Origin: Ichthyobacteriaceae bacterium
Lineage (GTDB): Bacteria > Bacteroidota > Bacteroidia > Flavobacteriales > JADGDT01
Assembly (NCBI GenBank): GCA_016744755.1
Contig: JADGDT010000025.1
Coordinates: forward strand, 1-35,401
DNA: 35,401 bases
Reading direction: 5' to 3'
Positions 1-30,314 of this stretch are shown piece after piece; position 1 is the first letter of the stretch; each line of letters begins with the position of its first letter. The notes below the pieces were generated by a model. That model was not told where the DNA came from. It saw only the letters and a program-made list of their open reading frames with translations, and did no database searches. The translations under genes and the position numbers were made by a program.

Positions 1-89
1 ACAGATGATAGTTTTTTAAAATATGTCTTAATTTCTGAGGATCTCATTCTTTTTATTTCAAATATACTTAAATTAAACGTCATTTTAAA

Positions 90-602
90 CTATAGCCTTA
101 TGGTTTTATTGAGATACCATAATGCTAATTTTAAGAAAACACTTTCTTCTATTTCTTTATCTGAAAAACTAAATTTATCGTCTGCAAGATCTTGTAATAC
201 AGATATTGAAGTTTTTACACTTTCTCTATATTTAGTTTCATTAGCTGTAACCATGTAGATATATTCAAGCTGGTATCTATTAGGTGCTTGTAACTCATTC
301 TCTGTTACTTCTCTTGATGTTATAATTATTTGAGGTCTTTTAATTATGATTGTGTTTTTGCCTTGTCTGTCAATTCTAAAAATTTCAGAAGAGATTAACT
401 CTTTAATTCGATCAACATTTTTTATTTTTAAATCTTCTACAATTATAAATTCTGTATCTTCATCTACACCTTGAAAAGGAAAGGTTGAATTTATTTGATG
501 CTCTGGTACTCTATAAATTTTACAATTTTTAGTTAATTTATCTACTAAATTGCTTTTACCAGTTTCTCTAGCTCCTACTATTAATGTTGTCTTGTTTCTC
601 AT
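90..602 (-). CDS. Small P-loop ATPase, SF3-helicase-like, of a mobile element
   Basis: A 170-residue protein with a Walker A motif GARETGKS (residues 10-17) right at the N-terminus, a hydrophobic strand ending in acidic residues (FIIVEDL) that fits Walker B, and PQIIITSRE, which fits the motif C/sensor strand of SF3 or AAA-type ATPases. No other domain is visible, so it is a bare ATPase core. It is the last complete gene of the leftward element operon (14 bases after the 617-874 gene), downstream of a primase-helicase. Replication or DNA packaging are both possible roles. The motifs are seen directly; the role is inferred from context. The operon probably continues off the left edge. Confidence 0.6.
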   Translation of the reverse strand: MRNKTTLIVGARETGKSNLVDKLTKNCKIYRVPEHQINSTFPFQGVDEDTEFIIVEDLKIKNVDRIKELISSEIFRIDRQGKNTIIIKRPQIIITSREVTENELQAPNRYQLEYIYMVTANETKYRESVKTSISVLQDLADDKFSFSDKEIEESVFLKLALWYLNKTIRL

Positions 603-616
603 AATATTTTTCGTTT

Positions 617-874
617 TTAAATTCCTTTATATAATTCTAATCGGTTTAACTCTCTAGCGTATCTAATTAAGTTTTTCATGTGTTCGTGTGCTTTTAAAGA
701 GTGTTCTTCCATTTTATTTAAACTAAAATCTACAGCACCATTCCTTCCAATAGATAAATAGTGTTCGTATAAAGCTTTTTGATTATTTAAAAATGAAATT
801 TCCATTTCATAAAAAGATTGCTCTCTACTTATCTGTGTTAATAGATCTTTACGTTTTTTACGGTATTCTTTCAT
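617..874 (-). CDS. Hypothetical small helical protein of the element operon
   Basis: An 85-residue highly charged protein, rich in Lys, Glu and Leu and predicted by eye to be almost entirely alpha-helical, with stretches that could form a coiled coil. I do not recognise a family. It sits between two other small genes of the leftward operon with very short gaps (2 bases upstream, 14 downstream), so it is likely co-translated. It has no signal peptide and no membrane segment. Small helical proteins of this kind are common in replication modules of Bacteroidota prophages, but no function can be assigned. Confidence 0.6.
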   Translation of the reverse strand: MKEYRKKRKDLLTQISREQSFYEMEISFLNNQKALYEHYLSIGRNGAVDFSLNKMEEHSLKAHEHMKNLIRYARELNRLELYKGI

Positions 875-876
875 GG

Positions 877-1161
877 TTAAAATTCGCTAGAGTTTAAATT
901 ACCTTCTTCATTTTCTATAGCAATGGATTTTATTACAATTTCGTTAGTTAAAAATCCATCTTTGCCCTCGTCAGCTTCTTTTACTACAACCTTTGCATCA
1001 TATTCGATATAAGGAAAAAAAGAAGCCATTATCTCCGCTACTTCAATTGCTTTTTCTTTATCATAGCCAAAACCTCTATACATCCAAAAACAATTATCAT
1101 CTTCAATTTTCGGTTCTGTATTACTTATTGTTTCTAAGTGGACTGTATATACTTTTTTCAT
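877..1161 (-). CDS. Hypothetical protein of the element operon
   Basis: A 94-residue acidic protein that starts with a beta-strand-like MKKVYTVHLE stretch and has alternating strands and one helix (EKAIEVAEIMASFF). It looks like a small soluble alpha/beta protein. No known motif, signal peptide or membrane segment is visible. It is tightly packed: 2 bases after the 1164-1433 reading frame and 2 bases before the 617-874 gene, consistent with one leftward transcript. Function unknown. Confidence 0.6.
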   Translation of the reverse strand: MKKVYTVHLETISNTEPKIEDDNCFWMYRGFGYDKEKAIEVAEIMASFFPYIEYDAKVVVKEADEGKDGFLTNEIVIKSIAIENEEGNLNSSEF

Positions 1162-1163
1162 AA

Positions 1164-1433
1164 TTAAAATAATTTAGGGTTATTTGTTTCTTTTATCTCT
1201 TCTTTGCTCAACCAGTCGCCAATGTGATATTGATTATATCTTCTACGAAAATCTGCATATTGCAAGCTTTCAGCACCTCCTATATTCTCGCTCCACGCTA
1301 TAGGGATTTTAAACCTCCCTTGTTTTTGAGTTTCGAGCTTATATACTTTGTGTATCTTGTCTTTAAGCTGGGTTAGTTGGTATTTGCGAGATCGTGCTTT
1401 ATTTATAAGCTCTAGTAGATACTCGGGATGCAT
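1164..1433 (-). CDS. Detached C-terminal part of the primase-helicase (frameshifted)
   Basis: An 89-residue frame starting MHPEYLLELINKARSRKY and rich in basic and aromatic residues. Its frame stays open upstream of the ATG (residues FTYEVDYIN precede the Met) up to the A8 tract at 1459-1466, where it would join the upstream primase-helicase if the tract had one base fewer. The content resembles the winged-helix-like tail often found after SF3 helicases of phage primases. I therefore read it as the separated C-terminus of the 1399-3522 gene, although independent translation from this ATG is possible. The 35-base overlap with that gene supports this reading. Confidence 0.55.
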   Translation of the reverse strand: MHPEYLLELINKARSRKYQLTQLKDKIHKVYKLETQKQGRFKIPIAWSENIGGAESLQYADFRRRYNQYHIGDWLSKEEIKETNNPKLF

Positions 1434-3522
1434 ATTTATATAATCTACTTCGTAGGTGAAAAAAAAGTTCTTTTACAGTTTCTTCTATAGCTTTTTCGAG
1501 CGGGCTTTTAGTCGAAGCCATAATTTTATAGAATTGATCTGTAAGGAAATCTTCTGTTTCGAACCACAATCTAGTTTTACGTTGATGAAAAGGTTTTCTA
1601 GTTCTTAAATAATAAAGGAATGCGGGTATTTCCTTTTTCATCTTCAATTCTAAATCAGGATCTAAATTATCCTCTTCAATTGATGGAACATTAATAACAA
1701 ACCAGCGTTTATCGTTTTCATCCATTTTCATAATGCTTTCGGCATCGTTACTAGTCATTATAACCTTGCCATAAAAGGGTATTTTCTTAACGTTTACCCC
1801 CTTATCTTCAATATATGCAGTATCAGCCGTAACCATTTGTTTAAGTCGCTCCTTGCTCTTCTTTGCTTCTACGTTGTCAGCTCCCATAATAGCCTCGTCA
1901 ATACCTATAATGTATTTACTTATATAGTGTCGGTTGAACCCCATTTTGAACTGCTCGTCATTAAGTATTGTTGAGTTTCCTTTGTACACTTCGCCTAACC
2001 ATTTAAGAAAAGTACTCTTACCAGTTTGTTGATCAGTAGAAACTAACATTGGTACTGGTAGCAAGTGAGTAGGTGCTACATATTGAATATTTAGGTAATC
2101 TAGTGCAACTGTAAACGTATCGCCCTTAAAATTGTATTCTTCTCCAGTTGCAAAGTCAATAGATCCTTTACCTTGAAAAATATGTTTAAGGAATTTATAT
2201 ATAGTTTTCCACTCTCCTTTTTCGGGTGTATAATACATTGGAGAATATAAATTGAAAGCTCCGTTTATTACTTCTTCGTGTTCGTTAGCCCAATTAGGAA
2301 ATACTGTAAAAGAATCATATTTGGGAATACCTTTTAGGAATCCTTTAAACTCATCGTAATCGTCTTTTATTTCGCCTTTAGGAAAAGGAACTAGCTCCCT
2401 TTCGGTTTCTCTATACTTATTTATACTTTCTATAAGTTTATACCAGTTACCACCCACACGCATAAAATTTTTAGTATCGTTGTGACGCAGGAATATTACT
2501 TTTTCGTAGTTATTATAGTAAATAGCATTCTTATACTTGAATTCTTGTTGACGTATGTAATAACTGTATTTCTCGTAAAATGCATTTACTCCATCAAGCC
2601 CAAAATATTTAAATAACTTAACATTGTAATCTTTACCAGTAAGCATCATTGTTTTAAAATATGCTTTTGATTTTGTGAGCTGGAGCAAGTCTTTTACTAT
2701 ATCTTCACTAGCTGTTTCGTGTTTTACAAGTAGATCGTCAAGCCCTTTTGCACTTTCGCTAAAACTTGTATTGATATGAGCAAAATAAACATCTTCTATC
2801 TGCCTTGTTTGCAGGAAAACATTCATTGAAGATCGAAAGTTTTTAGCTCCCGAAAAAAAAGATATAGGCCTATTGGTCATTTCTTTTTCAAACTCCCATT
2901 TAACCTCCATTGTATCAGCATCGGTAAGATAAACTACATTCTTAACCTTACATACTCTTATAAGTTCTTCAATCTCGTAATGTAAAGTTTTGATAAGTTC
3001 GTTTTCTGCTTTTTCGTTATCGTAAAAGCCGTGAATACTTGGAATGCCAATAATATCAATGCCACACATTGCACCTTTAAAAGCTTTAAATTCTCCCTCT
3101 GTAATAAATAGAGTGTCAAAGGTTTTTTTGTCCTGGTACTTACTTATTATTTGTGGAGGGAAAAAAGGTTTTAGCCCGCTTCCTTTTGGCGATAAGTATT
3201 TGTTAAATCTGCCTTGTGCATTGGGTTTAGGGTTTAGTATTCTTTTACGTGTAAATCTATCAGCCCATTTGTTAGATCCTTTCTTAAAACTCGCAGGATT
3301 ACCATGTAGAGTAAAATAATTGATTACAATATTTCCGTACTCGTCAGCTTCAAAAAAACTATAATCAACTAGTACTGTTTTTGCAGGATCTAAAGAAACT
3401 TTAATACTGTTGAGTTCCTTTGTTATCTTAAGTTCTGCCAGCCTAACGTCTAAATATTCAGTATTTGGATGTTTTTTTGAGCCGTTTGGGCTAACTGCTT
3501 GTGTAATTGTACGTGTTTTCAT
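1399..3522 (-). CDS. TOPRIM-SF3 primase-helicase (phage/plasmid type)
   Basis: A 707-residue replication protein. A TOPRIM-like primase domain is marked by ITEGE (Glu142) and LTDAD (Asp201, Asp203). It is followed by a D5/DUF5906-like SF3 helicase with Walker A around QQTGKST (Lys502), Walker B GIDE (Asp542-Glu543) and motif C VIMTSN. These families unwind and prime DNA of phages, satellites and plasmids. The frame ends with about 24 residues (from HLRSRL) that look out of frame. A +1 shift at the A8 tract 1459-1466 would instead extend it into the 1164-1433 frame, giving about 785 residues. The helicase part is duplicated at 4481-5284. It belongs to the leftward operon and is presumably controlled by the repressor encoded at 5430-5771. 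Confidence 0.85.
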   Translation of the reverse strand: MKTRTITQAVSPNGSKKHPNTEYLDVRLAELKITKELNSIKVSLDPAKTVLVDYSFFEADEYGNIVINYFTLHGNPASFKKGSNKWADRFTRKRILNPKPNAQGRFNKYLSPKGSGLKPFFPPQIISKYQDKKTFDTLFITEGEFKAFKGAMCGIDIIGIPSIHGFYDNEKAENELIKTLHYEIEELIRVCKVKNVVYLTDADTMEVKWEFEKEMTNRPISFFSGAKNFRSSMNVFLQTRQIEDVYFAHINTSFSESAKGLDDLLVKHETASEDIVKDLLQLTKSKAYFKTMMLTGKDYNVKLFKYFGLDGVNAFYEKYSYYIRQQEFKYKNAIYYNNYEKVIFLRHNDTKNFMRVGGNWYKLIESINKYRETERELVPFPKGEIKDDYDEFKGFLKGIPKYDSFTVFPNWANEHEEVINGAFNLYSPMYYTPEKGEWKTIYKFLKHIFQGKGSIDFATGEEYNFKGDTFTVALDYLNIQYVAPTHLLPVPMLVSTDQQTGKSTFLKWLGEVYKGNSTILNDEQFKMGFNRHYISKYIIGIDEAIMGADNVEAKKSKERLKQMVTADTAYIEDKGVNVKKIPFYGKVIMTSNDAESIMKMDENDKRWFVINVPSIEEDNLDPDLELKMKKEIPAFLYYLRTRKPFHQRKTRLWFETEDFLTDQFYKIMASTKSPLEKAIEETVKELFFHLRSRLYKYASRVSTRAYK
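1459..1466 (-). other. A8 (T8 in mRNA sense) tract at frameshift
   Basis: Eight A on the + strand read as CTT TTT TTT in the primase-helicase frame. Removing one base, or a +1 shift, joins the helicase to the downstream frame without any stop. This could be a mutation, a sequencing error, or a slippage site for RNA polymerase or ribosome. Confidence 0.6.
1549..2310 (-). repeat. Direct repeat copy A (helicase domain)
   Basis: This stretch of the primase-helicase gene is repeated in the same orientation at about 4499-5240, offset about 2950 bases at the left end. By eye over 90 percent of bases match in the first 650, then similarity falls. Recombination between the copies would delete about 2.9 kb, including the primase domain. 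Confidence 0.85.
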
Positions 3523-3609
3523 ACATTCGTGTCAGATTAAATGTAAAACTCCGATTAATAAGGGTATTAAAAAGAGGTTTACACCTTTCGTGTTATTGTT
3601 TTGTTAGTA

Positions 3610-3622
3610 GGGTGTGTGTGAA
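3610..3622 (-). promoter_or_regulatory. Repeated leader motif, copy 1
   Basis: The 13-base sequence GGGTGTGTGTGAA (+ strand) lies in the 171-base gap upstream of the primase-helicase start. The identical 13-mer occurs at 4413-4425, also upstream of a leftward gene, and a similar TTTTG-TAG stretch precedes both. It could be a regulator or replication-protein binding site. Function unknown. Confidence 0.35.
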
Positions 3623-3693
3623 AAATTCTTTACTTTCAGTAAAAAACATAACTTTTCAAAAAAGGCTGGTGTTATGCTGGGCTTTTTTATGTC

Positions 3694-3924
3694 TTATAAC
3701 TGCTCAATATCAATAACATTAATACTCTTAAGTAAATCTGTATAAATAGCTGGGTACTTGTTGTTGAAATTCTGTAAAGCTCCTTTCATTGCTTTTTTAG
3801 CAATAGTTTCGTGATTTGGAGAATAAGCAACAAACGAGTGTTTCAACTCTCTTAGGTAACCATGAGTAAAACAAGATCCGTCTTGTTTACTAACTTCTGT
3901 ATTGTATGTAATTTTGAAATCCAT
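3694..3924 (-). CDS. Hypothetical protein of the element operon
   Basis: A 76-residue soluble protein beginning MDFKITYNTEVSKQDG, with an N-terminal beta-hairpin-like part and a helical C-terminal half. No family is recognised and no motif, signal peptide or membrane segment is visible. It starts 2 bases after the stop of the 3927-4187 gene, so the two are probably translated together. It precedes the primase-helicase gene by 171 bases. It is likely an accessory early gene of the element. Confidence 0.6.
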   Translation of the reverse strand: MDFKITYNTEVSKQDGSCFTHGYLRELKHSFVAYSPNHETIAKKAMKGALQNFNNKYPAIYTDLLKSINVIDIEQL

Positions 3925-4480: not shown

Positions 4481-5284
4481 CTAGTTATCCTTTAAGATAT
4501 CTTCTGTTTCGAACCACAATCTAGTTTTACGTTGATGAAAAGGTTTCCTGGTTCTTAAATAATAAAGGAATGCGGGTATTTCCTTTTTCATTTTCAATTC
4601 TAAATCGGGATCTAAATTATCCTCTTCAATTGATGGAACATTAATAACAAACCAGCGTTTATCGTTTTCATCCATTTTCATAATACTTTCGGCATCGTTA
4701 CTGGTCATTATAACCTTGCCATAAAAGGGTATTTTAGTAACATCCACTCCTTTCTCTTCTATATATACAGTATCAGCCGTAACCATTTTTATAAGTCGCT
4801 CCTTGTTATAGGAATCTTTTAGATTAACCCCGTCAAAACCAATTATGTATTTACTTATGTAGTGATTGTTAAAATCCATTTTAAACTGCTCGTCATTAAG
4901 TATTGTTGAGTTCCCTTTGTACACTTCGCTCAACCACCTAAGAAAAGTACTCTTACCAGTTTGTTGATCGGTAGAAACTAACATTGGTACTGGTAGTAAA
5001 TGAGTAGGTGCTACGTATTGAATATTTAGGTAATCTAGTGCAACTGTAAACGTATCGCCCTTAAAATTGTATTCTTCTCCAGTTGCAAAGTCAACAGATC
5101 CTTTGCCTTGAAAAATATGTTTAAGGAATTTGTAAATAGTTCCCCAATCGCCCTCAACTGGTTGGTAGAACATTGGAGAATAAAGATTGAAAGCTCCATT
5201 TACTACTTTCTCATGCTCGTTTATCCAATCGGGATAAACTGTAGTTGAATTTCCTAAGCTTGTTTTCTTTACCGAATCTTTCAT
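4481..5284 (-). CDS. Stand-alone SF3 helicase-domain copy with altered Walker B
   Basis: A 267-residue protein closely matching the helicase part of the primase-helicase (its residues about 400-655) and lacking both the primase domain and the C-terminal tail. Walker A QQTGKST is intact, as is the motif C region VIMTSN. The Walker B segment reads GFDG (Asp151-Gly152) where the full protein has GIDE, and the following loop is shortened by about six residues. The family knowledge that the acidic pair activates water for ATP hydrolysis suggests this copy binds but does not hydrolyse ATP. It is the first gene of the leftward operon, right under the repressed promoter. It could be a decaying duplicate, or a regulator that joins helicase rings. 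Confidence 0.75.
   Translation of the reverse strand: MKDSVKKTSLGNSTTVYPDWINEHEKVVNGAFNLYSPMFYQPVEGDWGTIYKFLKHIFQGKGSVDFATGEEYNFKGDTFTVALDYLNIQYVAPTHLLPVPMLVSTDQQTGKSTFLRWLSEVYKGNSTILNDEQFKMDFNNHYISKYIIGFDGVNLKDSYNKERLIKMVTADTVYIEEKGVDVTKIPFYGKVIMTSNDAESIMKMDENDKRWFVINVPSIEEDNLDPDLELKMKKEIPAFLYYLRTRKPFHQRKTRLWFETEDILKDN
4499..5240 (-). repeat. Direct repeat copy B (helicase domain)
   Basis: Partner of the repeat at 1549-2310 in the same orientation. It covers most of the short helicase gene. Confidence 0.85.
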
Positions 5285-19308: not shown

Positions 19309-19336
19309 AAAAAAAGCCCATCACACATGATAGGCT
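19309..19336 (-). terminator. Terminator of the cold-shock gene cluster
   Basis: Stem AGCCcATCA / TGATaGGCT with one mismatch and a 4-base loop. On the - strand it is followed by seven T (19315-19309). It lies 28 bases after the last cold-shock gene. Confidence 0.7.
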
Positions 19337-19364
19337 ATTTTTTCAAAAAGATTAAAAGCTATAA

Positions 19365-19556
19365 TTAAATAACTTTTACATTTACTGCATTTAATCCTTT
19401 TTTACCTTCTTGTAGTTCGTATTCAACTGTGTCACCCTCACGGATTTCATCAACTAATCCTGATACGTGTACAAAATACTCTTTGTTTGAATCTTCATCA
19501 CTAATAAAACCGAAGCCTTTAGTGTCGTTGAAGAATTTTACTGTTCCTTTATTCAT
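19365..19556 (-). CDS. Cold-shock protein, copy 3 (distal)
   Basis: A 63-residue single OB-fold cold-shock domain that binds single-stranded RNA/DNA and melts mRNA structure. The RNP1 motif is KGFGFISDE and RNP2 is EYFVHVSGL. It differs from its two neighbours at only a handful of positions (DSN, YELQEGKK, final VKVI). It is the last of three tandem copies and the most divergent. A terminator follows directly. Confidence 0.95.
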   Translation of the reverse strand: MNKGTVKFFNDTKGFGFISDEDSNKEYFVHVSGLVDEIREGDTVEYELQEGKKGLNAVNVKVI

Positions 19557-19595
19557 CTTAAATAATTTTTTTTCAAAAAGATTAAAAAATTGTAA

Positions 19596-19787
19596 TTAAA
19601 CAACTTTTACATTTACTGCATTTAATCCTTTTCTACCTTCTTGTAGTTCGAATTCTACTGTGTCACCTTCACGGATTTCATCTACTAATCCTGATACGTG
19701 TACAAAATACTCTTTGTTTGCATCTTCATCACTAATAAAACCGAAGCCTTTAGTGTCGTTGAAGAATTTTACTGTTCCTTTATTCAT
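19596..19787 (-). CDS. Cold-shock protein, copy 2 (middle)
   Basis: A 63-residue cold-shock domain with RNP1 KGFGFISDE and RNP2 EYFVHVSGL. It differs from copy 1 by a single residue (DAN versus EAN at about residue 22-24). The 38-base spacers on both sides are nearly identical and A/T-rich, showing recent tandem duplication. It is probably co-transcribed with both neighbours. Confidence 0.95.
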   Translation of the reverse strand: MNKGTVKFFNDTKGFGFISDEDANKEYFVHVSGLVDEIREGDTVEFELQEGRKGLNAVNVKVV

Positions 19788-19825
19788 CTTAAATAATTTT
19801 TTTCAAAAAGATTAAAAAATTGTAA

Positions 19826-20017
19826 TTAAACAACTTTTACATTTACTGCATTTAATCCTTTTCTACCTTCTTGTAGTTCGAATTCTACTGTGTCACCTTC
19901 ACGGATTTCATCAACTAATCCTGATACGTGTACGAAATACTCTTTGTTTGCTTCTTCATCACTGATAAAACCGAAGCCTTTAGTGTCGTTGAAGAATTTT
20001 ACTGTTCCTTTATTCAT
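19826..20017 (-). CDS. Cold-shock protein, copy 1 (promoter-proximal)
   Basis: A 63-residue cold-shock domain protein with RNP1 KGFGFISDE and RNP2 EYFVHVSGL. It is the first of three tandem copies and follows a TATATTTG -7 box at 20056-20049, so its leader is only about 25 bases, with no room for a long cold-sensing leader like that of E. coli cspA. The three copies may simply raise gene dosage. Confidence 0.95.
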   Translation of the reverse strand: MNKGTVKFFNDTKGFGFISDEEANKEYFVHVSGLVDEIREGDTVEFELQEGRKGLNAVNVKVV

Positions 20018-20048
20018 CTTAATAATAGTATAATATAATAATAAGTGG

Positions 20049-23288: not shown

Positions 23289-23684
23289 ATAAACAGACTG
23301 TATCTTAGTTATTTGCGTCTCCTAAAAATTCAATTACTTGTCTTTAAAAAATGTCTTAATTTTAGATGATAAGTTTTATCTTTACTTGAAGTAATTACAA
23401 TGATTAGACTAGCTACCCCACCTAATCTTAATACTTTTGTGTTTTTTTAGGTTACTAATTGTCTACATCTAATTTGACAATTGACCCCAAAACAGAATAA
23501 GTGCCCTGATTTTGTGTGATACCTGTTTGTGTATGAAGCGTTGGGTATTTCGAAGCACTTCATTTTCAATTTACCGCAAATTTTATTTATACCTAAAATT
23601 TTTATTTAACCACTTATTGCCCAATGATTTATACACATTGTTGTGTTTTCGTACTTTATTTTCCATTCTGCTGATAGCGTTGGC
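23289..23684. other. Gene-free left flank of the restriction-modification island
   Basis: 396 A/T-rich bases without a convincing gene (a 79-codon + frame here overlaps the cassette end and looks spurious). It holds GATTAG/CTAATC symmetry near 23402-23430 and, at 23639-23654, TGTTGTGTTTTCGTAC, which returns inverted at the other side of the island (30315-30329). Confidence 0.5.
23639..23654 (+). repeat. Left arm of island-flanking inverted repeat
   Basis: TGTTGTGTTTTCGTAC. Its reverse complement matches GTACGAAACACAACA at 30315-30329 except for one A of a run. The pair brackets the restriction-modification genes. Confidence 0.4.
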
Positions 23685-24755
23685 TTACATTGGTTTTATC
23701 ATTTTTTCAATAAATTCAATTTCCGTTTTACTTAATTTATATTTTTCATAAAGTTGTTGGTCAATTTCTTCAATTGATTTACTCCAATCAATGTCAGGTT
23801 CAGAATGAAAATCTTGAAGAGGAACAAACTTGTATGTCTTTGAAGTTCCGTGTTGGCTTACTTTCGGTAAGCTATGCATAAACCTTGTAAATTTAGTAAA
23901 ACAATAGTTTACTAAATTACTAGCTGATCCTTTGTTTAAGTCTAAATCAGCTCCTATTACAATATATGTTTCAGTACTTATTGTATTAGGTTTACCGACA
24001 AATGCATTCAAATTATCATCGTTTAACTCTGTTCCAATATTGTTAGCATATGGTACAAATACTTTGAATTTATCAATCCAATTAGTGTTTTTAGTTATAT
24101 CCTCTTTATTCAAGTATCCGACTTGTTTTCCTCTACCATAACACAAAATCGGTGAGGTTAATCCTTTTTTTGAGGGTCTAAAGATGGACTGATTTTTAAC
24201 AATATTCCCCTCTAGTCCAAAAGGTTTTCTAGAAGATATAATATTCTCAAAAGATTCAAATTTTTCATTTGTTTTAACCTTTTTAATTATATCAACAGCA
24301 ATACCGTGTCGAATAAGAATATCAGAATCTTCTGTTTTTAAACTTCTTAAATTTTGAGATGGGTTTAAATTATCAGCATAAGTAAATACCTTTGTCAAGA
24401 CATCACTGTTATCGTAATTTTTATCTCTTAAGAAAAAGCAAATACCTCCTCTATTGTTTGTATTAGGGAAAATTATATCAGGATTTAAAAAGTCGTGTAG
24501 CTCTGAAATATTTCTATCATTTAACATTTGGTCTCTAAATGTATCTAATCCTTTTCCACCAGCATACCACCTTGTTGGCATAATTATACAGGTAAAGTTA
24601 GGGTCTAATTGTTTTGCAATATTTACAAAGTGGTTGTAAATTGGCTTAGCACTAGCCTGAGCACCGCCATCACTTTCTTGATATGGTGGATTACCAACAA
24701 TTACATTAAATTTCATATCGTTGTTGTTAATTTTTATAGTTTCATCTTCAATCAA
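23685..24755 (-). pseudogene. Silent C-terminal methyltransferase/target-recognition cassette
   Basis: This frame encodes a second version of the C-terminus of the adjacent 24992-28939 gene. It contains the catalytic NPPY motif (24681-24692) and a complete target-recognition domain, but no SAM-binding motif I, helicase or nuclease. It stays open upstream to 24941, where an in-frame TGA ends it. No ATG lies before 24716 and no promoter is visible, so it is probably not expressed. The first part is identical in DNA to the main gene for 321 bases and the end is near-identical, while the recognition region between them is only about 60 percent identical in protein by eye. That fits a stored alternative specificity. 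A free-standing partial methyltransferase is less likely. Confidence 0.75.
23692..23753 (-). repeat. 3' direct repeat of TRD cassette, copy 1
   Basis: 62 bases identical to 24999-25060; similarity continues with few changes for another 40-50 bases. It encodes the shared C-terminus ending EFIEKMIKPM. Confidence 0.9.
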
Positions 24756-24914
24756 ATCGTTTTCTTTGATTAAATCGTAGGATGTGTAGTTTGATTCTAT
24801 ATTTTCAATTTCTAGTTCAAGTAGTTTGTAAACTTTTCTAGTAAACTCATAAGCAATCTTGGATGTTGGGATTGAGTAAAAATTGTTAGCTACATCTTGT
24901 CCAAACTTTTTATA
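24594..24914 (-). repeat. 5' direct repeat of TRD cassette, copy 1 (321 bp identical)
   Basis: Compared base by base with 25898-26218 (offset 1304): no difference over 321 bases. It covers NPPY and the upstream strand-helix. Beyond it, single mismatches appear at 24593 and after 24914. Confidence 0.95.
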
Positions 24915-24991
24915 TGTGGCATACTCTTTTGCAATTCTTGGTCAAGAGTTGGCTCGTGCGAATTACAAATGTATATGGCTTTTGCGTTGGA

Positions 24992-27900
24992 TTACATCGG
25001 TTTTATCATTTTTTCAATAAATTCAATTTCCGTTTTACTTAATTTATATTTTTCATAAAGCTGTTGATCAATTTCTTCAATTGATTTACCCCAGTTGATA
25101 TCCGATTCAGAAGTGAAATTTTGAAGAGGAACAAACTTGTATGTCTTTGATGTCGCGTCTTGACCAGCTTTACCAATGCTATGTTGAAATCTAGCAAATC
25201 TAGTTTTAAAATATTTACATAAATTAGAAGCAGAACTGTCATTTAGTTTCAATCCGATTCCAACAACTATATATGATTCCGTACATATTGTATTAGGCTT
25301 ACCAATAAATGTGTTTAGGTTGTCATCATTCAACTCTGTTCCAATATTGTTAGCTCTAGCTGTGTAAACTTTATATTCGCTAATCCAGTCTTCATTTTTA
25401 TTTATTTCGTCCCTTTCTAGATAGCCTATTTGCTTTCCTTTTCCATAACAGACAATTGGGTTTTTTAATCCTTCGTTTGAACTTCTAAATTTTTCGTCTT
25501 TCGTAAAATAACCTCTAAATCCGAAAGGCCTTAATGAAGATATAAAATTTTCAAAAGATTCAAAATCATCATTTAATTTTACTTTTTCTGTGATTTCAAT
25601 CGCTCTATTATGACGTATTAATATGTCTGAGTCTTCGGTTTTTAGACTTCTCAGATTAATTGTTGGATCTAAGTCGTCATTGTAAGTATAAACATTGGTT
25701 AAATCTTTAGAATTATCGTGTTGGTTATCCCATAATAAATAGCAAATGCCACCTCTAAGGTTGATATTCGGGAAAATTAAATCTGGTTTCAAAAAATCGT
25801 GCAATTCTGAAATTCCTGTATCACTTAACATTTGTTCTCTAAAATTATTTAATCCTCTTCCACCAGCATACCACCTTGTTGGCATAATTATACAGGCAAA
25901 GTTAGGGTCTAATTGTTTTGCAATATTTACAAAGTGGTTGTAAATTGGCTTAGCACTAGCCTGAGCACCGCCATCACTTTCTTGATATGGTGGATTACCA
26001 ACAATTACATTAAATTTCATATCGTTGTTGTTAATTTTTATAGTTTCATCTTCAATCAAATCGTTTTCTTTGATTAAATCGTAGGATGTGTAGTTTGATT
26101 CTATATTTTCAATTTCTAGTTCAAGTAGTTTGTAAACTTTTCTAGTAAACTCATAAGCAATCTTGGATGTTGGGATTGAGTAAAAATTGTTAGCTACATC
26201 TTGTCCAAACTTTTTATACGTTGCATAAACAAATTCACCTTGTTTGGAAGCAATATCAAGTAGTAAAGTGGATTCGCTTATTGCATCATCTGGGAATGAG
26301 TTAATCATTTTATCGGTAACAATTTCGGGTGTAACAATCTCAGAAACCGATAAGCGACTAAATTTTTTCATCGCATTACTTGCTCTTTCAATTGGCAAAA
26401 TTGTAGTGTCATTTGTTAGTGAATTTATGTTATATATTTTATAATCTAATTCACTCAGTATAAAAGGATTAATATGCTCTTGAAATAATGAAAGTATATT
26501 TACTTCTAGGTTCAAGTTGGATGCTATTCGTAAATTATTTTCCTCATTTTTTATAGCTTTAATAATTTCTTGTAGTGATTTGACTTCTGAGTCTGTTAAA
26601 AAGGAAAAGAAAAGTATCCGTGCATAATACATAGCAAACTTTCCTTTGTAATCTATTTTTTCATCTTCTTTTGAAGATTTTGAATCCTTTTCTCCTTCAT
26701 CTGGCTTTTCTCCATTGTCAGGTTCATTACCAGTATCAATATCGTCTCCTTCGCCTTCTGACGGTTCTATTTCTAATCCTTGTCTTGATTTTAACCCACC
26801 TTGTTTTTCGATTACAGCTTTTATTGCCTCTATGTCTAATAATGAGAAATCTATCGAAATAGATGTAGCTTCATCTAACACACTTCTTTCACTAGAATAT
26901 TGACGAACCGCATCTAAAATGTCAGTAGGCTCAACTTCGACCATTTTTTTGTTGTTTATTCTAATGATGGGTGAAATCTGTAATTCACTTTGGATGCGTT
27001 CCTCTAATTTGGCATTTCCGTTAGATTCTACATTTACATTGTAAATCTGAGACTTTTGTTCCTGCATTTGGAACATTCTGTTCGGATTAAAATCAACGAG
27101 TAGGGTTTGAGGTTTCATATTGTATTTTACAATATCTCCATCAGGTTCTTTGTAAACCTTAATAAATTGACTTTGAAGTCTGAATATCGCTTGGTCATAT
27201 TCTTGCGGTGAAGCTGTGTCCTTTAAATAAAGCATAGTATCCCATTGTGGAACAGTACTTCCTGTAAGCATTCTATTCACTGTTAAAGTGATAGTTTTTT
27301 TGTTCTCACTTTCGCATTTACTTATTTTAGATTTTACAGATTGTGTGTCTTTGTAAATCTTGTCATTTTCAACACCAGAAATATTGATTACTTCATAAGA
27401 GCTTAAATTTTTAAATTTATTAGATGTTATTAACTCCTCAAAAGCATCACACGAAGCACGATAGGGAAGAACACAAACCATATGACGACACATTTTGCCA
27501 TCTTTCAATTTATCGTAATCTAGAAAGCTTAATAAGTTGTCATCTTCATCTTTACCATCAATCACATTTAGTAAATCAATTATTTCTTGTTCATAGATAA
27601 ACTTTTTATGTAGTTGGTTTGTGTTGTCTTTAAGTATGGATTTAGGTTTTAATAATTCAGAAAAAGCATAAGTAACCCCTAGCTTTTTAAGTTCTTCCAT
27701 TCTTTGTCTGGAAGATTTATTAGGGTTAAATGCAAAACGTATCATTTGAGGAAAACCATAATATGGGTTGTCCCACTCTTTTACTTCATCTTTTATTAGG
27801 TTTTGGTCATTCCAATACTGTTGGTCTTCTGCAATATTTGTGAATTGATAAAAGGCAATGATATCGTCATTTGTGAACTCACTGTTCATTAAAATTCGAT

Positions 27901-28939
27901 ATGGCGTTCCAGATAGATGAATGCGAACCTTTGCGTTTATCGATTTTGTAGTATCGTCTAATTGGTCTATGGATTCATCATTTAGTTTTTCCTCATTTTT
28001 TCGTTCTTTGGTTGAAAAGTCTTTTAAAATCTTACCATATTCTAATGCTCTTGCACCAAAATGAGTCTCGTCAATAAGTAATAAATCAATTTGATTTTCA
28101 AATACTTCCTTATGTTTTGTCTTTATATCATCTCCTTGTAAATCTTGAAGTGTAAGAAATAAAGCGATGTTTTCATTTGCCTCAATTTTTTCTTTAATGA
28201 TAGAATCACTTTGCAAAAGTGAGTTGCTGTCTAAAAACGAAAATCCATCAAATTTTTTATGGCTTTCTACAGTTTTTTTCCATTCTTCTCTAACATCTGC
28301 CTTTGCTGAAACAATTAAAACAATTTTGGCATTCATTTCTACTGCACAACACATTGAAGTAAATGATTTACCAAAACGCATTACAGCATACATTAAAAGA
28401 TTGATTCTGTCTTTTTTTAAAGCTTCTTTGAATCTTTCAATTGTTTCTTCTTGATTTGGTCTTGGCTCATAAGTTTCCGTTCTATTGTATGTATGAACTA
28501 TTGGAATATGACTGTCTTCAAACTTATAAAGCTGATATTTTGTATCATTGTTTTTATGAGAATCTTTTATGTCAATTATAGCATCATCTAAGTCATTAGG
28601 TGTAGCGTCTTTAAAAAATTCATTTGAATAATATGGTATTGTCTTTAATGTGTCAGGCAATAGCCTAGACTTTTGAATTTCATTTTCTAAGTATTTATGA
28701 ACTGCAAAATCTCTAAAAAACGTTTCTGCGTCAACTTTTGCAACCTCTTGAAACTTCTTTTGTAGCTCAGGAAAATGTTTTCGCCACTCATTAAGTCTTG
28801 TTTCTACTGGTCTGTATGTATCGCCAACTTTTAAATAATTAGGAATTGTTTCCGTTGTGAAAGCGTAAATATGAGGCTCAACTCTTCCGATGATTAATTC
28901 CTCCAGTATTTGTATATCTAGTTGATTATTTTCTGCCAT
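24992..28939 (-). CDS. Single-chain restriction-modification enzyme: GIY-YIG-like nuclease, SF2 helicase, N6A methyltransferase, TRD
   Basis: A 1315-residue protein. Residues 22-87 look like a GIY-YIG/T5orf172 nuclease (IYAF with Tyr25, YLKVG 35-39, Arg48, later Glu72 and His81). An SF2 helicase follows with Walker A MRFGKS (187-192), DETH (290-293), LSGTPYR and a QxxFRLQS-type motif VI. After an acidic linker (near 725-760) comes a gamma-class adenine methyltransferase: EIVTPEIV, motif I LLLDIASKQGEFVYA and NPPY (982-985). A target-recognition domain ends it. The layout parallels Type ISP enzymes (nuclease-helicase-methyltransferase-TRD) with a different nuclease. It overlaps the M-like gene by 14 bases. 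A silent alternative C-terminus lies directly downstream. Confidence 0.88.
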   Translation of the reverse strand: MAENNQLDIQILEELIIGRVEPHIYAFTTETIPNYLKVGDTYRPVETRLNEWRKHFPELQKKFQEVAKVDAETFFRDFAVHKYLENEIQKSRLLPDTLKTIPYYSNEFFKDATPNDLDDAIIDIKDSHKNNDTKYQLYKFEDSHIPIVHTYNRTETYEPRPNQEETIERFKEALKKDRINLLMYAVMRFGKSFTSMCCAVEMNAKIVLIVSAKADVREEWKKTVESHKKFDGFSFLDSNSLLQSDSIIKEKIEANENIALFLTLQDLQGDDIKTKHKEVFENQIDLLLIDETHFGARALEYGKILKDFSTKERKNEEKLNDESIDQLDDTTKSINAKVRIHLSGTPYRILMNSEFTNDDIIAFYQFTNIAEDQQYWNDQNLIKDEVKEWDNPYYGFPQMIRFAFNPNKSSRQRMEELKKLGVTYAFSELLKPKSILKDNTNQLHKKFIYEQEIIDLLNVIDGKDEDDNLLSFLDYDKLKDGKMCRHMVCVLPYRASCDAFEELITSNKFKNLSSYEVINISGVENDKIYKDTQSVKSKISKCESENKKTITLTVNRMLTGSTVPQWDTMLYLKDTASPQEYDQAIFRLQSQFIKVYKEPDGDIVKYNMKPQTLLVDFNPNRMFQMQEQKSQIYNVNVESNGNAKLEERIQSELQISPIIRINNKKMVEVEPTDILDAVRQYSSERSVLDEATSISIDFSLLDIEAIKAVIEKQGGLKSRQGLEIEPSEGEGDDIDTGNEPDNGEKPDEGEKDSKSSKEDEKIDYKGKFAMYYARILFFSFLTDSEVKSLQEIIKAIKNEENNLRIASNLNLEVNILSLFQEHINPFILSELDYKIYNINSLTNDTTILPIERASNAMKKFSRLSVSEIVTPEIVTDKMINSFPDDAISESTLLLDIASKQGEFVYATYKKFGQDVANNFYSIPTSKIAYEFTRKVYKLLELEIENIESNYTSYDLIKENDLIEDETIKINNNDMKFNVIVGNPPYQESDGGAQASAKPIYNHFVNIAKQLDPNFACIIMPTRWYAGGRGLNNFREQMLSDTGISELHDFLKPDLIFPNINLRGGICYLLWDNQHDNSKDLTNVYTYNDDLDPTINLRSLKTEDSDILIRHNRAIEITEKVKLNDDFESFENFISSLRPFGFRGYFTKDEKFRSSNEGLKNPIVCYGKGKQIGYLERDEINKNEDWISEYKVYTARANNIGTELNDDNLNTFIGKPNTICTESYIVVGIGLKLNDSSASNLCKYFKTRFARFQHSIGKAGQDATSKTYKFVPLQNFTSESDINWGKSIEEIDQQLYEKYKLSKTEIEFIEKMIKPM
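24999..25060 (-). repeat. 3' direct repeat of TRD cassette, copy 2
   Basis: Partner of 23692-23753, within the end of the active gene. Confidence 0.9.
25898..26218 (-). repeat. 5' direct repeat of TRD cassette, copy 2 (in active gene)
   Basis: Partner of 24594-24914. It encodes about residues 908-1014 of the active enzyme, ending just after the NPPY region and before the variable recognition domain. Confidence 0.95.
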
Positions 28940-29936
28940 TTATTGATGTCTTATTTTCTATCAGGTCAATAAACCTTAGTTTTTTACCTTTTAAATTTTC
29001 GTTTGACCAGTCCATAATTAAACAGTAAATACCATTATGTTCAAACATATTGTTATTGAGACAACCTTTGCAAAAGGAATTGTCAGTTTCTTCTTCACCA
29101 AATAAATTAACTGTTTTGGTTTTTATTTCTCCACAAGAAAATGGAACTACACCTTTTAAGCCATCCATCTGCCAAACATTCCAAGAAATTATATACGCTA
29201 TGTCTTGTATCGATTGGAGCAAGGGTTCTTTTTCAAATTTGTATTTGTAGTTTTCTAAGTATGTAAATAGCATTGATTCCCTAGCTAATAATAAACTGTC
29301 ACCTTGCCATTCATAGGCATAAGTATTTTTGTAAGCTGACTTAGTTGCCTTAAGCCATTCATCAGAATTATCAACATTTTCATTTATGACTCTTAGTTTT
29401 CTATCTAATAAACCAATTCTGTTTTCAATCTCAATGAATTTACCCGTTGTGGTATCGTATCTACTTGTTATGTATGGTGCTTCTCCGCAAGAAATTTCAA
29501 GTCGCTTATCATTTACATAACTTTTCCAAGTCTTGTTTTTTGGAAATTCAATTTTTGCTTTGTTAGTTTTCCATTTTTTTTCACTTGGCTTCTCTTTATT
29601 AAAAACGTTTTCTCGTTGAAACCACGATTTGTCTATTAAGTTGTTTTGTGCGTTACAAACCCAAGATGGTGTAAATACTTCTGCCATATTTTTCACTCTT
29701 GACTGTTGTAATACAGTATCCTTCTGTACTCTTGGCATTATTACGTTTCCATTTATTCCTGTAATAAGTTCAGGTTTTATTTGCTTTTTGTTGAGATAAT
29801 TATCTCCCAAATATTCATAATTATTTGTAGCCCAAATTATATTTTTTTGAGTAGTGTGGTCAAGCAGAAGTATATCCAGTATTTCTGGATATTTTTCTAA
29901 TATGTCATTTTCTAATATGTCAATTCGAGTATTCAA
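28926..29936 (-). CDS. Methyltransferase-like subunit of the restriction-modification system
   Basis: A 336-residue protein with the N-terminal half of an Eco57I/YeeA-type methyltransferase. VKNMAEVFTPSWVCN (about 82-96) corresponds to motif X, and ISCGEAPYITSRYDT (about 147-161) to motif I. IISWNVWQMDGLKG and a Cys pair (FCKGCLNNN) lie near the C-terminus. No NPPY motif is present, so it may not methylate alone. I recall such proteins being annotated as restriction endonuclease subunit M beside helicase-methyltransferase genes. It is overlapped by 4 bases with the HTH gene upstream and 14 with the large gene downstream, a tightly coupled three-gene operon. Confidence 0.75.
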   Translation of the reverse strand: MNTRIDILENDILEKYPEILDILLLDHTTQKNIIWATNNYEYLGDNYLNKKQIKPELITGINGNVIMPRVQKDTVLQQSRVKNMAEVFTPSWVCNAQNNLIDKSWFQRENVFNKEKPSEKKWKTNKAKIEFPKNKTWKSYVNDKRLEISCGEAPYITSRYDTTTGKFIEIENRIGLLDRKLRVINENVDNSDEWLKATKSAYKNTYAYEWQGDSLLLARESMLFTYLENYKYKFEKEPLLQSIQDIAYIISWNVWQMDGLKGVVPFSCGEIKTKTVNLFGEEETDNSFCKGCLNNNMFEHNGIYCLIMDWSNENLKGKKLRFIDLIENKTSINGRK

Positions 29937-30133
29937 TTCAGTTCTTTAATTGGTATTAATAATTCGTTTACTTCGACATTTAGTATGCTAGCTATTTTGT
30001 ACAAATCTTCCAAACTTGGTTGTCTTCTATTTTGAGCATAAGAATTTACCATATTGTAACTCTTTCCCAATTGTTCAGCAAGCCAAATTTGCTTTATTCC
30101 TTTTTTTTCTAAAACCTCTTTAATTCGGTTCAT
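29933..30133 (-). CDS. HTH regulator (C-protein-like) of the restriction-modification operon
   Basis: A 66-residue Cro/CI-type HTH protein: IKQIWLAEQLGKSYNMVNSY forms the HTH, and PSLEDLYKIASILNVEVNEL is the usual XRE C-terminal helices. It is the first gene of the operon, overlapping the M-like gene by 4 bases (ATGA type). Small HTH proteins in this place act as controllers that delay restriction until methylation is established. A palindrome CTCATTAAATGAG about 53 bases upstream of its ATG is a likely binding site, giving autoregulation. Confidence 0.85.
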   Translation of the reverse strand: MNRIKEVLEKKGIKQIWLAEQLGKSYNMVNSYAQNRRQPSLEDLYKIASILNVEVNELLIPIKELN

Positions 30134-30198: not shown

Positions 30199-30314
30199 TA
30201 TAAAAATATTCATTAGAGTGTGGTCATTGGCAAAAAAATGCTCTTTTGTTTTTTTGAGTTGGCTTATGTGTTGTCCAAAAACTAAATGCGTATTTTGTGC
30301 GGTTGGCTTTTTTT

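What the first reader, a model, noticed from the sequence alone, without database searches (positions are those of the whole stretch)
23685..26218. Silent target-recognition cassette that could switch a restriction-modification enzyme's specificity
Directly seen: the C-terminal part of the 1315-residue enzyme is present twice in tandem. The two copies share 321 identical bases ending at the NPPY region and near-identical 3' ends (62 identical bases plus), while the recognition domain between them is only about 60 percent identical in protein. The second copy lacks a start and promoter and is closed upstream by an in-frame TGA at 24942-24944. Identical borders with a diverged centre are what recombinational cassette exchange or gene conversion would produce. 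Crossing over between the 321-bp repeats would delete the active domain and fuse the stored one in frame; gene conversion could swap without loss. Inferred: specificity switching of both restriction and methylation. The bases CAAGAATTGCAAAAGAG just upstream of the cassette hint that further copies were once present.
Basis: partly seen in the sequence, partly recalled or inferred. Interest (0 to 1): 0.82.

Follow-up and report, generated by a model that had tools for sequence, protein, structure and literature searches.

The report
Restriction enzyme's displaced former recognition domain
A bacterial DNA-cutting-and-marking enzyme appears to have recently swapped its DNA-reading domain, and the old domain still lies intact and silent just behind the gene, where ordinary recombination between a perfect 321-base repeat could swap it back.

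Summary
The gene is the 1315-aa GIY-YIG/helicase/Eco57I-methylase fusion of a three-gene R-M operon. Comparison with 80 relatives adds polarity. The active gene's body is closest to Winogradskyella, Maribacter and Ancylomarina orthologues (90-93% aa), but its recognition domain comes from another lineage (91% to L045, 61-64% to those body relatives). The silent domain is the one those body relatives carry (76-86%). So the silent copy is most likely the displaced ancestral specificity and the active one a newcomer. No intact second copy was found in 68 relatives with at least 1.5 kb of sequence downstream. Five other loci carry only a 3' remnant of a second copy. This is therefore a recent, still reversible specificity replacement; a dedicated switch is not shown. 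The "hint of further copies" is wrong: those bases are the right arm of a conserved hairpin that ends the R-M cassette. Seen in passing: such hairpins bracket defence and metal-resistance operons across Bacteroidota, often beside an integron-integrase-like recombinase.

The parts
30231..30297 (-). Upstream cassette hairpin (E_up), CACATTTG/CAAAAGAG type, degenerate
   Evidence: covariance model hit 21 bits, E 0.007
29933..30133 (-). 66-aa XRE/controller-like regulator gene
   Evidence: same gene precedes the system in relatives
28926..29936 (-). 336-aa methyltransferase-like subunit M1 (EAPY motif), 80-99% conserved between relatives whose recognition domains are unrelated
   Evidence: PADLOC PDLC03390 383 bits
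24992..28939 (-). Active 1315-aa fusion: GIY-YIG (T5orf172) nuclease, ResIII helicase, Eco57I N6-methylase, C-terminal recognition domain
   Evidence: PDLC03626 REase_MTase_IIG 1430 bits
26231..26257 (-). Methylase motif I (DIASKQGEF); the duplicated stretch starts just after it
   Evidence: inferred from conservation
25898..26218 (-). 321-bp repeat, active copy
25110..25857 (-). Active recognition domain, imported (L045 lineage)
24999..25060 (-). 62-bp 3' repeat, active copy
24913..24983 (-).
   Evidence: 72 bits
24942..24944 (-). In-frame TGA upstream of the silent copy (inside E_down)
24920..24923 (-). TATG shared by the right arm of E_down and the gene (26224-26227): junction microhomology
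23685..24923 (-). Silent 3' copy, 412 intact codons, no methylase motifs X and I, no start
24594..24914 (-). 321-bp repeat, silent copy
23803..24553 (-). Silent recognition domain, ancestral type (L048/L056/L059 lineage)
23692..23753 (-). 62-bp 3' repeat, silent copy
23640..23684 (-). 3' flank of the silent copy (GCCAACGCTatCAG..AAAATAAAGTACG), resembling what follows E_down in L049

Best explanation
The locus records a recent replacement of the recognition domain of a single-chain Type IIG-like R-M enzyme. The ancestral 3' end (end of methylase core, recognition domain, stop) became tandemly duplicated, probably through the TATG shared by the gene and by the hairpin behind it. The front copy then received a domain from another lineage by homologous recombination in the conserved methylase core and the conserved last codons. 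The old domain now lies intact and silent behind the cassette's end hairpin. As the only variable specificity part, the active domain sets what the enzyme cuts and methylates. Because the 321-bp repeat is perfect, RecA-type recombination should occasionally delete the new domain and restore the old one, or convert one copy by the other. Shown: mosaic ancestry, identical borders, intact silent frame, remnants elsewhere. Inferred: order of events, reversion, change of target.
For: Identity along the gene: active nt 1-3042 is 78-97% to L049/L056/L059, while nt 3150-3750 is 63-70% to them but 87-92% to L045; the silent domain is mostly 78-91% to L048/L056/L059 and 63-69% to L045. Protein: ACT body best L059 93%, ACT domain best L045 91%, silent domain best L048 86%, L059 85%. 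Both copies share 3' bases not seen in the relatives compared (AGTAAAACGG), and the 321-bp tract has no difference while the silent domain differs from its nearest relatives by dS of at least 0.6. Family-wide exchange: 346 of 650 pairs with bodies at least 70% alike have domains under 50%, with M1 80-99% conserved in the swapped pairs examined. Second 3' ends behind exchanged genes: L076, L077, G490, and fragments in G253 and G097.
Against: The order of events is not fixed: a Campbell-type single crossover with a DNA carrying the new 3' end gives the same picture. Two mismatches just upstream of the 321-bp tract mean either copy may have been converted later. The nearest relatives still differ by about 10% in nt, so no direct parent is known. 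Silent-branch changes (9 synonymous, 13 replacement) do not tell recent silencing from relaxed selection. No reads, methylome or expression data.
Confidence: 0.66

Rival explanations
1. A maintained specificity switch: the silent copy is a stored cassette, kept by selection and exchanged often with the active one, so that populations are mixed in restriction and methylation target.
For: Perfect 321-bp direct repeat, intact silent frame, in-frame fusion possible, domains from different lineages. A pneumococcal locus (tvr/SpnIV) exchanges Type I domains by excision through direct repeats (PMC6265443).
Against: No intact second copy in 68 relatives with complete downstream sequence; other loci show only 3' remnants; no recombinase gene recognised among the neighbouring genes; simple deletion would lose one domain for good.
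Confidence: 0.15
2. The reverse polarity: the active domain is the resident one and a foreign 3' fragment landed behind the gene, its ends later made identical by gene conversion.
For: 5'-truncated methylase-domain fragments of this family do travel, e.g. in Tenacibaculum phage PTm5. The silent copy sits outside the cassette's end hairpin.
Against: All close relatives of the body (L048, L049, L056, L059) carry the silent-type domain, so parsimony makes it ancestral; the bases behind the silent copy look like the usual sequence behind this gene.
Confidence: 0.13
3. Assembly artefact: two strain variants of one gene chained in a mixed assembly.
For: Draft assembly of 242 contigs; the repeat is longer than short-read k-mers.
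Against: The hairpin-to-silent-copy junction is unique sequence that needs real reads; the graph body-repeat-newdomain-hairpin-repeat-olddomain-flank has only this linear path; no other contig holds a variant; a truncated second 3' end also exists in a single-contig genome, G490.
Confidence: 0.05

Closest known systems
Domain movement and allelic TRD exchange in H. pylori R-M genes (Furuta 2011 PMC3077401; Furuta 2014 PMC3983042)
   Same: Recognition-domain sequences are replaced by recombination in conserved flanks, changing specificity of one locus; repeats can add or remove domain copies.
   Different: There: Type I S, Type III M and S-type IIG genes, mostly between strains. Here: the 3' end of one fused nuclease-helicase-methylase gene, with the former domain left silent behind the gene.
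Excision-reintegration at the pneumococcal tvr/SpnIV Type I locus (PMC6265443)
   Same: Alternative domains joined to one gene through direct repeats, with a circle as possible intermediate.
   Different: No dedicated recombinase gene recognised, one silent domain, a single-chain enzyme, no sign of conserved use.
Type I systems with duplicated hsdS genes that invert (REBASE survey PMC7394358)
   Same: A silent second specificity determinant downstream of the expressed one.
   Different: Here the repeats are direct, not inverted, so crossover deletes rather than flips.
DrdVI-like Type IIG systems (GIY-YIG nuclease fused to translocase, two methylases; described in PMC4996451)
   Same: GIY-YIG plus translocase and two methylase components.
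   Different: In the window the second methylase is fused to the translocase; sequence relation to DrdVI itself was not tested.

Membership tests
Type IIG-like fused R-M enzyme (PADLOC REase_MTase_IIG) | Restriction and methylation domains in one polypeptide | tested here: met
   PDLC03626 1430 bits over residues 4-1315; T5orf172, ResIII and Eco57I domains
Type IIG-like fused R-M enzyme (PADLOC REase_MTase_IIG) | Cuts and methylates DNA at a defined site | not testable with these tools
   No activity or methylome data
Domain movement / TRD exchange | Recognition domain has a different ancestry from the rest of the gene, with breakpoints in conserved flanks | tested here: met
   breakpoints near nt 3043-3082 and 3830-3890 of the gene
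Domain movement / TRD exchange | Exchange changes the methylated motif | not testable with these tools
   Needs SMRT or Nanopore data; indirect: both domain sub-modules differ
Phase-variable specificity locus | Alternative arrangements coexist in a clonal population | not testable with these tools
   No reads; a single arrangement in the assembly
Phase-variable specificity locus | Dedicated recombinase or inverted repeats | tested here: not met
   Long repeats are direct; no recombinase recognised among the ORFs around the R-M operon (read by eye)
Phase-variable specificity locus | Arrangement conserved among relatives | tested here: not met
   0 of 68 relatives with at least 1.5 kb downstream have an intact second copy

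The most novel reading that the evidence does not exclude
A reversible two-state specificity locus for a single-chain nuclease-helicase-methylase, in which the former recognition domain is kept behind the cassette's end hairpin and is recalled by recombination through a direct repeat.
Probability: 0.15. Interest if true: 0.7.

Novelty: new variant of a known kind. Interest (0 to 1): 0.46.

Why it matters
Specificity change in restriction systems is usually inferred from comparing strains. Here one chromosome seems to hold both the old and the new recognition domain of the same enzyme, in a state that ordinary recombination could reverse, so the process can be caught and tested. In related loci only a fragment of a second 3' end remains, which suggests that such intermediates are common and short-lived. 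It also shows that M1 stays constant while the domain of the fusion protein changes, so one exchange could retarget cutting and methylation together.

Tried and rejected
Integron attC site between the copies: the hairpin has no GTTRRRY/RYYYAAC pair, and no attC-like site was found in the window. Known RNA family: none reached threshold in Rfam. Silent copy as a decaying pseudogene by dN/dS: inconclusive. Viral contigs: no relative found. Solved structures: no hit. A first hairpin pattern missed the window copy because its spacer was too short; a first regular expression was faulty and was replaced.

Full report
What was checked. The window is the whole of contig C8 (35,401 bases) of a 3.64-Mb draft genome in 242 contigs. 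On the minus strand, 28939-24992 encodes 1315 residues; behind it lies a second 3' end, open from 24929 to 23685 and closed upstream by TGA at 24942-24944. Position by position, silent 24594-24914 equals active 25898-26218 without a difference (321 nt), and 23692-23753 equals 24999-25060 (62 nt); in between nucleotide identity drops to about 60-70%. Only these two copies exist in the held genome.

What the gene is. Pfam finds a T5orf172 (GIY-YIG) domain at 23-121, ResIII at 157-310 and Eco57I methylase at 917-1056. PADLOC places it in REase_MTase_IIG with 1430 bits. The gene before it (336 aa) matches a PADLOC Type II methylase family and carries an EAPY motif in 69 of 76 sequences. Before that lies a 66-aa XRE-type gene, 30133-29933. 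From conservation I read motif I as DIASKQGEF (895-903) and motif IV as NPPY (982-985); the duplicated part starts just after motif I, so the silent copy cannot be a complete methylase. DrdVI, described as a GIY-YIG translocase-nuclease with two methylases (PMC4996451), has similar parts; I did not test sequence kinship with it.

Ancestry of the two domains. A scan of bacterial and archaeal genomes gave 80 loci of this family. Along the gene the active copy is closest to L049 (Ancylomarina), L056 (Maribacter) and L059 (Winogradskyella) up to about nt 3042 (78-97% in 150-nt windows); from about nt 3083 it follows L045 (87-92%) and falls to 63-70% against the former. The silent domain does the opposite: mostly 78-91% to L048/L056/L059 and 63-69% to L045. 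In protein: body best 93% (L059), active domain best 91% (L045), silent domain best 86% (L048) and 85% (L059). As all close body relatives carry the silent type, the silent domain is most likely ancestral and the active one imported.

Why the borders are identical. Both copies share 3' bases not seen in the relatives compared (AGTAAAACGG) and a difference-free 321-bp tract, while the silent domain differs from its nearest relatives by dS of at least 0.6. So the borders were duplicated or homogenised recently. Just upstream of the tract the copies differ at two of five bases, the silent one matching L059, so later gene conversion is possible. At its 5' edge the silent copy joins the right arm of a hairpin at TATG, which also occurs in the gene at that point. 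Tandem duplication through this microhomology, then exchange of the front domain, is the simplest order I can give; a single crossover with a DNA carrying the new 3' end would look the same.

How common this is. Of the 80 loci, 68 have at least 1.5 kb behind the gene; none has an intact second copy. Domain exchange itself is pervasive: 346 of 650 pairs with bodies at least 70% alike have domains below 50%; L079 and L099 have bodies at 93%, domains at 21%, and M1 at 94%. Five further loci keep only a 3' fragment of a second copy: L077 and L076 behind a small extra gene, G490 behind two extra genes, G253 behind a nuclease-like gene, and G097 behind a RhuM-like gene. In G490, a one-contig genome, the remnant reads SQHGTSKT and the active gene SQDATSKT, the same two types as silent and active here. 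Where an exchange has taken place, then, the second copy usually does not last. G490 and the unique junction sequence speak against an assembly artefact.

Do the two domains read different DNA? Probably, not shown. Two short sub-modules (FGLEGNIVKN or FGFRGYFTKD; QHGTSKT or QDATSKT) define the types, and they reassort: L047 and the fragment in Tenacibaculum phage PTm5 combine the first type of one with the second of the other. Active and silent differ in both. At 62% identity overlapping specificity cannot be excluded.

Function. Best supported: a recent replacement of specificity whose former domain is still usable. By general knowledge of RecA recombination (not tested), 321 bp of perfect direct repeat should allow deletion (restoring the ancestral gene) and conversion. 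A maintained switch is possible but has no positive evidence: no recombinase recognised beside the operon, long repeats direct rather than inverted, arrangement not conserved. Known parallels are domain movement in H. pylori (PMC3077401, PMC3983042), the tvr locus (PMC6265443) and duplicated hsdS genes (PMC7394358). I found no description of a displaced domain behind a fused enzyme of this kind, but the paper library is partial.

The hairpin between the copies. CAAGAATTGCAAAAGAG belongs to a covarying hairpin of about 70 nt (6 of 17 pairs with compensatory change) that follows the stop codon in many relatives. It is absent from Rfam at threshold. A related hairpin stands before the operon in relatives and, degenerate, in the window. 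Such pairs, in direct orientation and typically 2.5-8 kb apart, bracket whole operons in other Bacteroidota: Type I, II, III and IIG R-M, SIR2, TIR and kinase-helicase genes, metal efflux, RNA repair (some of these identities were read by eye from the sequences). attC-like sites of about 130 bp lie next to some of them (34 strand-counted hits, none in shuffled controls), and a tyrosine recombinase resembling integron integrases lies beside or near the first hairpin in nine of ten loci examined. The window's R-M operon thus looks like one such cassette, with the silent copy directly outside its end. I followed this only in part.

Noticed in passing
window 30231-30297 and 24913-24983; L065, L155, L159-L162, L197-L216, L249-L257: Two classes of conserved hairpin (CACATTTG..CAAAAGAG) bracket complete operons (R-M and other defence, metal resistance, RNA repair) in direct orientation across Bacteroidota (56 of 296 genomes match the pattern), often beside attC-like sites and an IntI-like tyrosine recombinase: an integron-like cassette platform whose hairpins are not in Rfam at threshold.
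   Followed up: partly
L137 (Tenacibaculum phage PTm5) 4001-6749: A phage carries a 5'-truncated, frameshifted piece of this same enzyme (methylase plus recognition domain), followed by a regulator gene and a gene annotated as type II restriction endonuclease: a possible vehicle for recognition domains.
   Followed up: partly
window 1537-2189 and 4487-5124: A second C-terminal gene duplication in the window: the DUF5906 helicase-like end of a 707-aa protein is repeated at 92-93% nt identity in a 267-aa ORF, in a phage- or plasmid-like segment.
   Followed up: no
window 19336-20022: Three tandem 226-nt repeats (92-98% identical) between selD and mutS2; the minus strand reads as three cold-shock-protein genes (recognised by eye), a fourth diverged copy on contig C114.
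   Followed up: partly
L047, L050, L064, L137 and the window domains: The recognition domain seems to have two sub-modules that reassort independently in the family, which may mark two separate base-contacting parts.
   Followed up: partly
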